In this document: positions 40,652 through 55,519 of the stretch, piece after piece | Layout: each line of letters starts with the position of its first letter | How positions within the stretch are numbered: position 1 is the stretch's first letter | Assembly (NCBI RefSeq): GCF_001422325.1 | Contig: NZ_LMMR01000007.1 | Location: 1-55,534, forward strand | DNA from: Leifsonia sp. Leaf264 | Lineage (GTDB): Bacteria > Actinomycetota > Actinomycetes > Actinomycetales > Microbacteriaceae | Direction of reading: 5' to 3' | Length of the DNA: 55,534 nucleotides | Notes under the pieces: generated by a model | Databases searched by the model: none | Seen by the model: only the letters and a program-made list of their open reading frames with translations | What the model was told of the DNA's origin: nothing | Made by a program: the position numbers and the translations under genes

Positions 40652-40720
40652 GGTGTGCGCTCGCGTCAGGCCAGGTGTGCGCTCACGTCGGGCCTGCGGT
40701 GGTGCGCCGTACGTCAGGCC
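40652..40720. repeat. 22 bp tandem repeats next to the aminotransferase stop
   Basis: GGTGTGCGCTCGCGTCAGGC at 40652 recurs 22 bases later with few changes, and a third GTCAGGCC lies 26 bases further on. The third copy contains the stop codon of the aminotransferase gene. Confidence 0.6.
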
Positions 40721-45279: not shown

Positions 45280-45918
45280 CTAGTGCTTGTTCCCGCTCAG
45301 GGCCAGCACTCCGCCGAGGCCGATCATCATGACGCCGCCGGTGGCCGAGAGAGTCGAGATGCGCTTCGGCGAGCGTGCGAACCAGTCCCGTGCCGTGCCG
45401 GCAGCCAGCGCCCACACGCTGTCGCAGCACAGGGCGAGCACCACGAAGACGGCACCGAGCTCGGCCATCTGCAGCGGGACCATGCCGATCGAGTAGTCGA
45501 CGAACTGCGGGAGCACGGCGACGAAGAAGGCGATCGTCTTGGGGTTGGTCACGCCGACGACGAAGCCCTCGCCGAGCAGTCGCCAGGGCGAACGCGGCGC
45601 GACGTCGCCGGTGGCCGCCGCCGCGGCATCGTGCCGGTGCCGGATCGCCTGAATGCCGAGGTAGACCAGGTAGGCGGCGCCGAGCAGCTTCACGGCAGTG
45701 AAGACGGCGACCGACTGTGCGACGAGTGCCCCGACACCGAGCGCGACGGCAGCGACGAGGGGCAGCATCCCGAGCGCGTTACCGACGACGCTGAGCAGGC
45801 CACCGAGCCGGCCGAGGGCCAGCGACCGGCCGATCACGAACAGCACGCTCGGCCCCGGGATCACGATGAGCACCACTGATGCCAGCACGAAGGCGAGCAG
45901 ATGCGGGGCTGGGACCAT
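45280..45918 (-). CDS. LysE/RhtB family amino acid exporter
   Basis: A 212-residue membrane protein with about six hydrophobic segments. The family landmarks are VLIVIPGPSVLFVIGRSLALG (about 17-37), KLLGAAYLVYLGIQAIR and GFVVGVTNPKTIAFFVAVLP (about 117-136). It exports amino acids or related metabolites; the substrate is unknown. The ATG is supported by a leaderless promoter. The divergent gap to the next gene contains the 22 bp repeat arrays. Confidence 0.9.
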   Translation of the reverse strand: MVPAPHLLAFVLASVVLIVIPGPSVLFVIGRSLALGRLGGLLSVVGNALGMLPLVAAVALGVGALVAQSVAVFTAVKLLGAAYLVYLGIQAIRHRHDAAAAATGDVAPRSPWRLLGEGFVVGVTNPKTIAFFVAVLPQFVDYSIGMVPLQMAELGAVFVVLALCCDSVWALAAGTARDWFARSPKRISTLSATGGVMMIGLGGVLALSGNKH

Positions 45919-45991: not shown

Positions 45992-46101
45992 CTGCCGCCG
46001 TGTGAAGGCACACCTGCCGCCGTGTGAAGGCCTACCCTCCGCCGTATGAAGGCGAACCTGCCACCGTGTGAAGGCGAACCTGCCGCCGTGTGAAGGCACG
46101 C
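45992..46101 (+). repeat. five tandem 22 bp direct repeats (iteron-like array)
   Basis: Five units of exactly 22 bases begin at 45992, 46014, 46036, 46058 and 46080. The consensus starts CTGCCGCCGTGTGAAGGC and ends with a variable 4-base tail (ACAC, CTAC, GAAC, GAAC, ACGC). Differences between units are mostly single bases. Confidence 0.9.
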
Positions 46102-46140
46102 GCCGGCCGACTCCCGCTTTCCCGCGGAACGGAGCGCGAC

Positions 46141-46256
46141 TGTGCCTTCACATGGAGGCACAGTGCCTTCACATGGAGGGACGACGCCTTCACACGCCGG
46201 GACGACTCCTTCACATGGAGGGATGCCGCCCGCCCGGCGGGACGATGCCGTCACAC
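46141..46256 (-). repeat. inverted array with a 21 bp period
   Basis: The complementary core CCTTCACA starts at 46145, 46166, 46187 and 46208, each 21 bases apart, within TGCCTTCACATGGAGG-like units. A further variant CCGTCACA is at 46248, 40 bases on, after a degenerate unit. The first unit can pair with the first unit of the left array over 14 of 15 bases. Confidence 0.85.
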
Positions 46257-46268
46257 GGATGGGTGCTC

Positions 46269-46274
46269 TAGCGT
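46269..46274 (+). promoter_or_regulatory. -10 hexamer of a leaderless promoter (HIBYL-CoA hydrolase gene)
   Basis: TAGCGT lies 7 bases before the GTG at 46282. The last repeat unit (46248-46255) falls in its -35 region. Confidence 0.5.
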
Positions 46275-46281
46275 GGCATCC

Positions 46282-47370
46282 GTGACCGACACGACGAGCC
46301 CTGCGACGGATGCAGCACCCACAGCCGAGCCCGAGGTCCTCGCCTCGGTCACCGACGGGGTCGGCCGCATCACGCTCAACCGGCCGCGCGCGCTCAACGC
46401 CCTGAGCTACGCGATGATCGGGCTGATCACCCACCACCTCGAGGCCTGGCGCGACGACTCCGAGGTCGCCCTCGTCGTGCTCGACGGCGCAGGCGACCGT
46501 GGTTTCTGCGCCGGCGGCGACATCAGGGCGCTCTGGGAGAACGCGAGCGCTGGCAGCAATGCCGATTCCCGTACCTTCTTCCGCGAGGAGTACAGGCTGA
46601 ACGCCATCATCGCCCGCTATCCGAAGCCCGTGGTCGCCATCATGGACGGCATCACGATGGGCGGCGGCATCGGCCTCGGCGGCCACGCCTCCATCCGCAT
46701 CGTCACCGAACGCTCCAGGCTCGCGATGCCCGAGACCCGCATCGGCTTCAGCCCCGACGTCGGCGGCACCTGGCTGCTCGGTCGCGCCCCCGGCGAGCTC
46801 GGCACCCACCTCGGCCTGAACGCGGCCACCATGACCCCGGCCGACGCCATCGCCGCCGGATTCGCCGACTACCTGGTGCCGAGTGCCGCCCTGCCGCACC
46901 TGGTGCAGGCGCTGCAGGAGCGCGCCGACCCCGGCTCGCCGCCCGAGATCGTGCTGCTCTTCGACGAGACGCCGGGGCCCAGCGAGCTCGAGGCTCGGCG
47001 GGAGTGGATCGACGCCTGCTACTCGGCATCGACCGTCGCCGAGATCATCGACCGCCTGCGCGCACGACCGGAGTCCGAAGCGGCCCGGGCTGCGGACGAG
47101 CTCGAGGCGCTCTCGCCGACAGGGCTGACCGCCACTCTCGCCGGCATCCGTTCGGCGCGTGCCGCGTCGAGCCTCGAGCAGGCTCTCGAGGGTGAATACC
47201 GCACAGTGGCCTGGCTCATCGATCAGCCAGATCTGCGCGAGGGCATCCGCGCCCAGGTGGTCGACAAGGACCGCACTCCGCGCTGGAGTCCGGCCACGCT
47301 TGCCGAGATCGACACGGATGCAGTCCTCGCGGCCATCGCTCAGGAGCCGCCCGAGCCGCTCTGGGCGTGA
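46282..47370 (+). CDS. 3-hydroxyisobutyryl-CoA hydrolase / enoyl-CoA hydratase family protein
   Basis: A 362-residue crotonase-fold protein. The length and text match 3-hydroxyisobutyryl-CoA hydrolases of valine catabolism rather than short enoyl-CoA hydratases. ITLNRPRALNALSYAMI is at 30-46, the oxyanion loop FCAGGDIRALWE at 75-86, ITMGGGIGLGGHA at 124-136, and RLAMPETRIGFSPDVGGTWL at 146-165 with the conserved Glu151 and Asp159. The release of 3-hydroxyisobutyrate leads to propionyl-CoA, for which prp genes lie downstream. The GTG start is set by the promoter. Confidence 0.87.
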   Translation: MTDTTSPATDAAPTAEPEVLASVTDGVGRITLNRPRALNALSYAMIGLITHHLEAWRDDSEVALVVLDGAGDRGFCAGGDIRALWENASAGSNADSRTFFREEYRLNAIIARYPKPVVAIMDGITMGGGIGLGGHASIRIVTERSRLAMPETRIGFSPDVGGTWLLGRAPGELGTHLGLNAATMTPADAIAAGFADYLVPSAALPHLVQALQERADPGSPPEIVLLFDETPGPSELEARREWIDACYSASTVAEIIDRLRARPESEAARAADELEALSPTGLTATLAGIRSARAASSLEQALEGEYRTVAWLIDQPDLREGIRAQVVDKDRTPRWSPATLAEIDTDAVLAAIAQEPPEPLWA

Positions 47371-54870: not shown

Positions 54871-55512
54871 GTGTCGATACGCGCTCTACTTCGCCATGCC
54901 CGGATTCGCCTGGAGCGTTCTGAGACGGATGCCCCCTCTCCGCGTTCAGGCGGGGTGGGTCGCGCACATCGCACGCTCGCCGCTGTCGCCATCGCCGCGG
55001 TCGCAGTCGTCGTCGGTGTCACCTTGGTGCCGACTGCAGCCTGGGCGGCCGAGGACGACTCGATCGAGGGCACGGTTCGGTATCTGGGTGATTCGCAGCC
55101 GATCGCGGGGGCGTTGGTGGAGTTCTTCGATGCGGCTGGTGATGGTCTGACGCCGGTGGCTGATGGCACGTATGTGGTGTCGGGGTTGCCGTTCGGTTCG
55201 TACAAGATCCGGTATTCGGCTGAGCCGACGTTGTACATGCCGCAGTGGTACTACCAGCGGGCGTCGTTCGCGGAGGCGCAGGGGATCGATCTGGTCGATG
55301 GCAGTCATCCGACGGGTATCGATGTGTATCTGACGGATGCGACGGACTCGATCGAGGGCACGGTTCGGTATCTGGGTGATTCGCAGCCGATCGCGGGGGC
55401 GTTGGTGGAGTTCTTCGATGCGGCTGGTGATGGTCTGACGCCGGTCTGGGTGATTCGCAGCCGATCGCGGGGGCGTTGGTGGAGTTCTTCGATGCGGCTG
55501 GTGATGGTCTGA
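54871..55512 (+). CDS. secreted repeat protein, frame broken in the repeats
   Basis: The frame runs 213 residues. A long n-region is followed by a signal-peptide core (TLAAVAIAAVAVVVGVTLVP) and an AWA cleavage site near residue 62, then a 96-residue CNA-B-like unit starting DSIEGTVRYLGDSQPIAGAL and containing PQWYYQRASFAEAQG. A second unit follows at once, identical at the DNA level at its start. It is cut after 101 bases by a 214-base deletion relative to the unit pitch, which shifts the frame and gives a stop at 55510. The GTG start has GGAGGT 5 bases upstream. Third-position GC is visibly lower than in neighbours. Probably a partial gene or an assembly collapse. Confidence 0.7.
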   Translation: MSIRALLRHARIRLERSETDAPSPRSGGVGRAHRTLAAVAIAAVAVVVGVTLVPTAAWAAEDDSIEGTVRYLGDSQPIAGALVEFFDAAGDGLTPVADGTYVVSGLPFGSYKIRYSAEPTLYMPQWYYQRASFAEAQGIDLVDGSHPTGIDVYLTDATDSIEGTVRYLGDSQPIAGALVEFFDAAGDGLTPVWVIRSRSRGRWWSSSMRLVMV

Positions 55513-55519
55513 CGCCGGT
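55057..55519 (+). repeat. 288 bp tandem coding repeat, partly collapsed
   Basis: The segment beginning GACTCGATCGAGGGCACGGT occurs at 55057 and 55345 (pitch 288 bases). A third copy enters at 55446, already 27 bases into the unit. The three share about 74 bases of identical sequence. Confidence 0.85.

What the first reader, a model, noticed from the sequence alone, without database searches (positions are those of the whole stretch)
45992..46256. Facing arrays of 22 bp and 21 bp repeats between divergent lysE and HIBYL-CoA hydrolase genes
Seen: five direct units of exactly 22 bases (core CCGTGTGAAGGC), a 39-base spacer, then at least four inverted units (core CCTTCACA) exactly 21 bases apart plus a degenerate outlier. 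Known: 21-22 bp is two turns of B-DNA, so proteins on such sites stack on one face, as in iteron and UAS arrays. Inferred: the array lies upstream of both leaderless promoters and may control both genes together, or form a large cruciform or RNA hairpin. It is unlike ordinary single operators.
Basis: partly seen in the sequence, partly recalled or inferred. Interest (0 to 1): 0.75.

Follow-up and report, generated by a model that had tools for sequence, protein, structure and literature searches.

The report
Nuclease-linked palindrome family across genomes
The repeat array is one of 24 copies of a rigidly spaced palindromic element scattered through this bacterium's genome, and such elements come in lineage-specific versions that flank, and tend to change together with, the gene for an uncharacterised nuclease-like protein, which suggests an enzyme-and-site partnership that the paper searches made here did not find described.

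Summary
The array is one of 24 copies of a dispersed, about 100-bp intergenic element. All 24 keep exactly 58 bp between the inner facing units, and a second unit 22 bp outside one of them; most carry a central GC dyad, and the rest of the spacer varies. Two copies flank a 287-aa DUF559 gene (Vsr-like nuclease domain) between folA and dapA. In related genomes DUF559 genes are also flanked by inverted-unit elements, with another unit per lineage: 25 of 49 loci carry the same word of 8 or more bases as an inverted pair in both flanks, random blocks 11 of 3000. Such elements are dispersed up to 43 times per genome. Units mostly follow the protein, not the genome. Of two sister species, one lacks the gene at this locus and the other has a diverged gene with another unit; most G000-type elements examined there are decayed or absent. 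It works like REPIN/RAYT without RAYT. The coupling is well supported; mobilisation or upkeep by the nuclease is inferred.

The parts
45998..46009 (+). outer + unit 1 (CCGTGTGAAGGC)
46020..46031 (+). + unit 2
46042..46053 (+). + unit 3 (one mismatch)
46064..46075 (+). + unit 4 = site C of the canonical element (element read on the - strand)
46086..46097 (+). + unit 5 = site B, inner
46109..46127 (-). central GC dyad ('core'; consensus CCSSGGNATTCCSGGCCTC, here CCGCGGGAAAGCGGGAGTC, 5 mismatches)
46144..46155 (-). - unit 1 = site A, inner (CCATGTGAAGGC)
46165..46176 (-). - unit 2 (21-bp pitch)
46186..46197 (-). - unit 3 (one mismatch)
46207..46218 (-). - unit 4 (two mismatches)
46247..46258 (-). 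outlying - unit, 40 bp from the last (one mismatch)
46056..46160 (-). canonical A-core-B-C element, 91.5 bits to covariance model R1 (it is one of the 26 training sequences)
45280..45918 (-). LysE-type translocator gene (neighbour, not thought to be part of the system)
46273..47370 (+). HIBYL-CoA hydrolase-like (ECH_2) gene (neighbour, not thought to be part of the system)

Best explanation
The array is an expanded member of a dispersed palindromic element family whose trans-acting partner is a DUF559 protein: a Vsr-like PD-(D/E)XK nuclease domain behind a possible AbiEi-type winged-helix N-terminus. Shown by computation: inverted units at a fixed, system-specific distance; DUF559 genes flanked by the same kind of element; unit sequence mostly following the protein lineage; most elements examined decayed or absent in sister species that lack that gene at its locus or carry a diverged one. 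Inferred: the protein recognises the inverted units on one face of the helix and, together with a hairpin-forming spacer, nicks or cuts there, so that repair copies or maintains the element. That would be a REPIN-like population run by a nuclease instead of a RAYT transposase. Any effect on lysE or HIBYL-CoA hydrolase would be incidental.
For: (1) 24 full-length elements in G000, each spanning 105 bases for 105 model positions, inner spacing 58 in 24 of 24; unit blocks 90% identical between copies, non-core spacer 37% (shuffled 29%). (2) A DUF559 gene lies between two elements in G000, and homologues lie beside elements next to dapA in G203 and G284. (3) Same word of 8 or more bases as an inverted pair in both flanks at 25 of 49 DUF559 loci; random blocks 11/3000, flanks swapped between genomes 142/2288. 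(4) AATGCAGGA elements per genome: G383 43, G408 38, G150 36, G364 26, G291 24, G250 23; none in 8 of the 20 genomes searched; reversed control 0 in all 20. (5) Unit similarity tracks protein identity (r 0.59, 0 of 2000 permutations as high); G408 has two DUF559 genes with two units, each matching that gene's nearest relative in another genome. (6) G001 has no DUF559 gene between folA and dapA (it has one elsewhere); G002 has another DUF559 with another unit there; G000-type elements score over 50 bits at only two places in each, others are relics or absent. (7) Innermost left and right spacers equal in length in 16 of 17 flanked loci, mostly with unlike sequence. (8) E192, D218, E228 and D240 invariant in 24 proteins; DUF559 matched in 24 of 24. 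(9) Own halves of the inner hairpin fold better than dealt halves, 0 of 60.
Against: No movement was seen. No target-site duplication stands out. Distant copies within G408 share at most 70% of the spacer (median 49%), so there is no sign of a recent burst; the one 93% pair is a local duplication that includes its left flank. Conserved units beside diverged spacers could equally mean selection for a host function at each site. 24 of 49 DUF559 loci fail the two-flank test. Exceptions: G082 has 14 AATGCAGGA elements without a DUF559 match at 1e-10, G203 has 2 without a known gene of that unit; several genomes with TGTGnAGG elements have only lower-scoring DUF559 genes (G285, G243, G194, G214, G334, G213, G258). 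The unit flanking G002's dapA-locus gene was not dispersed in 400 kb of G002. For seven of the 15 genes with an in-genome paralogue the nearest relative elsewhere is under 46% identical and its unit does not match well. Mid-stem pairs in a fixed register show no covariation. DUF559 is not known to me as a transposase family.
Confidence: 0.62

Rival explanations
1. The elements are functional chromosomal sites (regulatory, nucleoid-organising or DNA-repair sites) bound by the DUF559 protein acting as an AbiEi-type DNA-binding protein, kept by selection at each locus and not mobile.
For: Units stay near-perfect while spacers diverge: in G408, 31 of 32 gap-57 elements carry TGTCGAA outside the searched word on the left, and 28 of 32 the full complement TTCGACA on the right. 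Rigid spacing. AbiEi_4 matched in 11 of 24 proteins.
Against: Neighbour genes are of many kinds: 43 of 46 scanned have a Pfam match, the only domain family I saw recur at more than two places being GNAT acetyltransferase (3 of 46). No orientation preference relative to transcription by eye. Elements are absent or decayed at most orthologous sites examined. Units differ between genomes at the same dapA locus. Acidic residues are invariant, so nuclease activity seems needed.
Confidence: 0.25
2. Ordinary MITE-like relics of a lost DNA transposon; the DUF559 gene is a passenger or later neighbour.
For: About 100-bp elements with inverted ends, dispersed in intergenic DNA; near-identical left and right spacers at 3 of 17 loci (91-93%); presence/absence between species.
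Against: No target-site duplication. Units are conserved far above the spacer, the opposite of neutral decay. The DUF559-element arrangement recurs with different units in several genera and at two conserved addresses, dapA and gltA.
Confidence: 0.07
3. Strong transcription terminators or RNA-processing hairpins that have become similar.
For: 21 of 24 elements have a gene's 3' end on at least one side and 3 of 24 lie between divergent genes; element-free room in the sampled loci is 36% divergent. Hairpin folding above controls. The RNase J site in G001 and G002 keeps a terminator-like core by eye.
Against: No Rfam match in 7 loci. The third unit (C) cannot join the inner hairpin, yet it is present with at most one mismatch in 24 of 24. 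Gap classes differ by about a helical turn. The tie to DUF559 genes is left unexplained.
Confidence: 0.04
4. A local operator for lysE and the HIBYL-CoA hydrolase gene.
For: Position between divergent genes; expanded array.
Against: 23 other copies beside other genes; smaller in G002 and one recognisable unit in G001.
Confidence: 0.02

Closest known systems
REPIN / REP with RAYT (REP-associated tyrosine transposase), PMC3116915 (passages read)
   Same: Inverted pairs of a conserved short unit at a fixed distance, a spacer whose length and hairpin capacity seem to matter, extragenic dispersal, a partner gene with the repeats in its flanks, more than one class in one genome.
   Different: The partner here is a DUF559 PD-(D/E)XK protein, not a Y1/HUH RAYT (none found in G000). 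By eye the units lack the GTAG/CGTC tag; a third direct unit is part of the G000 element; a GC dyad sits at its centre.
DUF559 / Vsr-like endonucleases (Pfam PF04480, PF18741), e.g. Caulobacter VsrA (PMC12907096, passages read) and PDB 3hrl
   Same: Nuclease domain and invariant acidic residues.
   Different: Here with a possible AbiEi-type N-terminus and flanked by palindromic elements; no methyltransferase link was looked for.
Free-standing homing endonucleases of the EDxHD type (recalled; named in the listed abstract of PMC6083498)
   Same: An E..D..ExD..H..D order of conserved residues (resemblance recalled, not tested).
   Different: No interrupted cognate allele seen; the sites are dispersed palindromes.
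Iteron and UAS arrays (recalled)
   Same: Tandem sites about two helical turns apart.
   Different: 24 dispersed copies with facing units and a fixed inner gap.

Membership tests
REPIN/RAYT | Partner gene is a Y1/HUH tyrosine transposase (PF01797) | tested here: not met
   0 matches in G000; 5 of 14 control genomes matched. Only G000 was tested.
REPIN/RAYT | Inverted unit pairs at fixed spacing | tested here: met
   24 of 24 at 58 bp; other systems: 18 of 21 at gap 57-59, 32 of 37 at gap 57 and the rest 55-56
REPIN/RAYT | Extragenic dispersal | tested here: met
   24 elements between predicted genes; the inner pair overlaps a gene end by about 8 bp in two (rough gene caller)
REPIN/RAYT | GTAG or CGTC tag on the unit | tested here: not met
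   by eye, units; the tag is taken from the title of PMC3733652 (listing)
REPIN/RAYT | Repeat in the flanks of the partner gene | tested here: met
   but for DUF559 genes: both flanks at 25 of 49 loci
DUF559 (PF04480) | Pfam match and conserved acidic residues | tested here: met
   31.2 bits against cut-off 20.6 for the G000 protein; 24 of 24 members match at E up to 0.01; E192, D218, E228, D240 invariant
AbiEi antitoxin N-terminus | PF13338 match | tested here: inconclusive
   11 of 24 members at E up to 0.01; G000 protein 14.5 bits, below cut-off 25
MITE / DNA transposon | Target-site duplication | tested here: not met
   no boundary pair stands out in 24 elements
Rfam structured RNA | Match to a curated family | tested here: not met
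   0 matches in 7 loci at gathering score
Homing endonuclease | Cuts an allele lacking its gene and is copied in | not testable with these tools
   needs biochemistry

The most novel reading that the evidence does not exclude
A second, independently evolved REPIN-type system: DUF559 (Vsr-like PD-(D/E)XK) enzymes, each with its own unit sequence and helix-phased spacing, replicate or maintain populations of hairpin palindromes in bacterial chromosomes. Enzyme and site co-evolve at fixed genomic addresses (beside dapA and gltA), switch specificity between sister species, and leave decaying palindromes behind when the gene is lost or replaced.
Probability: 0.5. Interest if true: 0.92.

Novelty: categorically new. 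Interest (0 to 1): 0.85.

Why it matters
DUF559-type genes gave 1 to 7 matches (fragments counted) in 37 of 40 genomes searched, and Pfam still describes DUF559 as of unknown function. If each reads its own dispersed palindrome at a set helical spacing, many matched protein-site pairs become available at once, including paralogues in one genome and a change of unit between sister species. That would give these proteins a testable function, offer a natural series for studying how DNA recognition changes, and show that a REPIN-like way of life does not need a HUH transposase.

Tried and rejected
Local operator for lysE/HIBYL-CoA hydrolase: rejected because of 23 other copies. RAYT partner: no PF01797 in G000. 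Known RNA family: none in 7 loci. Fixed-register stem covariation in the spacer: none, although own halves fold better than dealt halves. Target-site duplications: none. Viral relatives: 13 stretches matched a pattern in viral contigs, none confirmed; tblastn found two unannotated phage contigs and three Tsukamurella records; two of the three Tsukamurella loci and one of the two phage loci were inspected and show no word shared between flanks, so the arrangement is not shown outside this family. Five of the six stretches of the genome-collection scan lie in unrelated organisms and were not inspected. Loose pattern searches of G001 and G002 were not discriminating.

Selection to keep in mind. 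One search scored only 9 candidates per genome with stricter filters, so its absences are weak. One search used 40 genomes that I chose, with and without elements. One search used 49 loci: the best match of 30 genomes plus 19 paralogues; the place of L185's gene is uncertain (contig end). One search lost 5 of 49 proteins and mis-took L224 (corrected). One search used the 31 loci for which I had a unit, some read by eye, from one flank or from an 8- or 9-base word; L185, L187 and loci without a unit were dropped; the test does not remove shared ancestry. One search listed 19 loci; one search used 17 (L178, L187 dropped), innermost facing pair of each flank. In one search extra units lie only on the gene-distal side in 5 of 8 loci that have extras; my notebook entry 8 says 'always', which is too strong. 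The covariance model was trained on the 24 G000 elements, so its scores on them are not independent. rests on a rough gene caller. The gaps come from searches that allowed 44-72 and 44-64 only. In one search the inner 9 bases of the unit were set by the search, 37 of the 38 G408 places were fetched (one that looked coding was left out, not tested), and 32 with gap 57 were aligned. Fetched but not analysed: the G291 stretches and the G082 and G327 stretches.

Full report
What is there. Between lysE (45280-45918, minus) and the HIBYL-CoA hydrolase-like gene (about 46273-47370, plus) lie five direct units of CCGTGTGAAGGC, 22 bp apart, and, 46 bp further on, four inverted units 21 bp apart plus one off-pitch unit.

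It is a dispersed family. A DNA search of the window's own genome (G000, 4.54 Mb, 11 contigs) gave 33 matches. The 12-mer CCRTGTGAAGGC occurs 69 times against 0 for the reversed control. A covariance model finds 24 full-length elements; its further rows overlap these or their arrays. Of the 69 words, 54 lie inside the 24, 13 within 200 bp of one and 2 elsewhere. In all 24 the innermost facing units start exactly 58 bp apart, with a further unit 22 bp outside on at least one side (at most one mismatch). Oriented by the better outer unit, the elements align without gaps: unit A, a GC dyad (CCSSGGNATTCCSGGCCTC) at a fixed place, inverted unit B, and a second inverted unit C. Orientation was set by the units alone, yet the asymmetric right edge of the dyad lines up (T 20/24, C 19/24). 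The dyad itself is loose: 0 to 8 mismatches to its consensus, 5 in the window copy. Unit blocks are 90% identical between copies; the non-core spacer is 37% identical against 29% for shuffles. The window copy and those at C7:382 kb and C7:122 kb carry long arrays; C2:38 kb has one extra unit.

Where the copies sit. All 24 lie between predicted genes; in two the inner pair overlaps a gene end by about 8 bp. 16 lie between co-directional, 5 between convergent and 3 between divergent genes, the window among the last. Pfam on 46 neighbouring proteins (all those called except the DUF559 gene) gives matches for 43, of many kinds; only GNAT acetyltransferases stood out as recurring (3 of 46). Divergent gaps look under-used (36% of room in the sampled loci), but the gene calling was rough.

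Hairpin and helix phase. With arms and core kept, the inner parts of the 24 elements fold better than shuffles (mean z -1.28, range -4.2 to +2.5, window copy -0.93), and exchanging right halves between elements never gave as low a mean energy in 60 deals. A fixed-register mid-stem does not covary. Measured between TGTGnAGG and its complement, the gap is 48 in G000; in G203, G284 and G408, 18 of 21 sampled elements have 57-59, two have 70, and one has 80 by exact words (58 if its mismatched inner unit counts). G327 has 58, 69 and 69. Steps of about 10-12 bp are what a protein complex on one face of duplex DNA would need; that is an inference.

The partner gene. Two elements about 1 kb apart in G000 (C4) enclose a 287-aa reading frame between folA (DHFR) and dapA (DHDPS). 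Pfam: DUF559 at 31.2 bits (cut-off 20.6), REase_MTES_1575 and AbiEi_4 below their cut-offs. Homologues about 35% identical lie beside elements next to dapA in G203 and G284. A profile of these three, run on 40 chosen genomes, scored 300 bits or more outside the training genomes only in G322, G408, G099 and G327, all with TGTGnAGG elements. Other genomes with such elements have only lower scores (G285 258 bits, G243 261, G213 252, G194 248, G214 215, G334 140, G258 88).

A general arrangement. In the flanks of DUF559 genes the same kind of element appears with other units: TTGTGCAGGA, AGAAATGCAGGA, GTCCGAAATGCAGGA, CGATCTGCAGG, GTCGAAAATGCAGGA, TTCCGAAATCCATGCA, GTCAGCGGAGT and others. Counting strictly, 25 of 49 loci have the same word of at least 8 bases as an inverted pair (loop 38-82) in both flanks; random 850-bp blocks in element-bearing loci give 11 of 3000, flanks swapped between genomes 142 of 2288. 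In 16 of 17 loci the innermost left and right spacers have the same length, mostly with unlike sequence; three loci have 91-93% identical spacers and one 65%, a sign of copying or conversion. Of 48 loci, 14 lie beside dapA and eight beside a gltA-like 3' end.

Dispersed copies of other units. AATGCAGGA pairs (allowed gap 44-64): G383 43, G408 38, G150 36, G364 26, G291 24, G250 23, G082 14, G353 9, G357 4, G100 4, G213 3, G203 2, and none in G000, G001, G002, G284, G194, G214, G161 and G003; the reversed control gave 0 in all 20. At least some single matches may lie in genes. In G408, 37 of the 38 were read: 32 have gap 57, four 56 and one 55; of the 32, 31 carry TGTCGAA before the searched word, which the search did not ask for. 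In 400 kb of G002 two elements of the unit flanking one of its DUF559 paralogues were found, and none of the unit flanking its dapA-locus gene. G082 (14 elements, no DUF559 match at 1e-10) and G203 (2 elements, no known gene of that unit) are open exceptions.

Unit goes with protein. Across 31 loci with an assigned unit, unit similarity and protein identity correlate (r 0.59, 0 of 2000 permutations as high; shared ancestry not removed). The cleaner test is within genomes. G408 has two DUF559 genes, 38% identical, with units TGTTGTGCAGGA and TGTCGAAAATGCAGGA; their nearest relatives in other genomes (70% and 77% identical) carry GTTGTGCAGGA and GTCGAAAATGCAGGA. The same holds for L177 (G284), L189 (G291) and L195 and L225 (G100). 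Where the nearest relative is distant (34-45%: L197, L210, L215, L221, L222, L223, L226) the unit matches poorly or in part.

Loss and decay. G002, of the same genus, has another DUF559 gene with another unit between folA and dapA; G001 has none there (folA and dapA about 155 bp apart), though it has a DUF559 homologue elsewhere. The G000 model scores over 50 bits at two places in each. Relics sit at orthologous sites (lysE/HIBYL-CoA hydrolase, RNase J, others), and at three G000 sites no element is recognisable in G002. At the L043 site G001 keeps the central hairpin well while the units are partly damaged. In 398 family genomes the model matched only G000, G001, G002 and, weakly, G408, whose unit differs but whose core is alike (few candidates scored per genome). 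A genome-collection scan found one element in a record titled Glaciibacter flavus, now Orlajensenia flava of the Microbacteriaceae, which suggests, but does not prove, the family of the host.

Protein. DUF559 matches 24 of 24 aligned members, MTES_1575 21, AbiEi_4 11, AbiEi_3_N 2, Vsr 1, RAP 1. E192, Q209, D218, E228 and D240 are among the invariant residues. The only solved relative by sequence at E up to 1 is 3hrl. Two distant Tsukamurella homologues are annotated 'type IV toxin-antitoxin system AbiEi family antitoxin domain-containing protein'; those loci share no inverted-pair word between flanks.

Mechanism. Shown: a specific, repeated coupling of DUF559 genes with palindromic elements, in cis and dispersed, coordinated in unit and spacing. 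Inferred: direct recognition by the protein, and a nicking or cutting role in copying or upkeep of the elements, as RAYT is thought to do for REPINs. The main rival is that the sites serve the host and are kept one by one; near-perfect units beside diverged spacers fit that too. Movement has not been seen.

Literature. Searches in the held open-access library: REPIN+RAYT+actinobacteria 0 papers; Microbacteriaceae+intergenic+inverted repeats+dispersed 1, listing only; the word TTGTGCAGGA 106 papers, 15 listed, none about this by title; DUF559+palindromic 2, irrelevant by listing; DUF559+endonuclease 9, one read in passages; REPIN+RAYT 18, 12 listed, two searched for passages; AbiEi+DUF559 0; EDxHD/homing endonuclease/Vsr 25, 12 listed; repetitive extragenic palindromic+actinobacteria+transposase 5, listing only; Vsr+repetitive extragenic palindromic 0. 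PMC3733652 has no hits for five actinobacterial name stems or for Vsr. Other papers and preprints were not searched, so 'not found in print' holds only for these searches.

Novelty call. I chose 'categorically new' because a defining feature of the nearest kind (the RAYT transposase) was tested and not met and the partner is an unrelated protein family. Someone who defines the kind by behaviour alone would call it a new variant of REPIN systems.

Noticed in passing
L227-L246 (G002 C2:1-400000): Another inverted-repeat family, CGTATCGAGA-like, at 6 places with variable loops; its partner gene, if any, was not sought.
   Followed up: no
L060 site; orthologous place in G002 (C2 about 329400-329760): Where G000 has an element, G002 has a tandem repeat containing GCTGGTTGAGTAGGCGCGAGCAGC.
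   Followed up: no
L207 (G000 C7:250100-253500): Another DUF559 gene of the window's genome has TGCAGGA-type words in its flanks, with a shorter loop on the right; the words TTTGCAGGA and TTGCAGGAT were not found in 199 kb of other G000 sequence.
   Followed up: partly
G082: 14 AATGCAGGA elements but no DUF559 match at 1e-10: a lost or strongly diverged partner gene.
   Followed up: no
L277 (G408 C1:1894947-1895321): One element in G408 carries an AGAAATGCAGGA-type unit instead of TGTCGAAAATGCAGGA, as if from a third system.
   Followed up: no
window 55371-55519: An exact 74-bp tandem duplication near the window's end.
   Followed up: no
window 40652-40694: A 22-bp tandem pair GGTGTGCGCTCACGTCAGGCCA (90% matches), unlike the units in sequence.
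   Followed up: no
G001 C3:40831-40892: A long near-perfect palindrome starting TGTGCAGGATGAGAGAGGTTTC, resembling the word flanking G001's DUF559 gene (L200).
   Followed up: no
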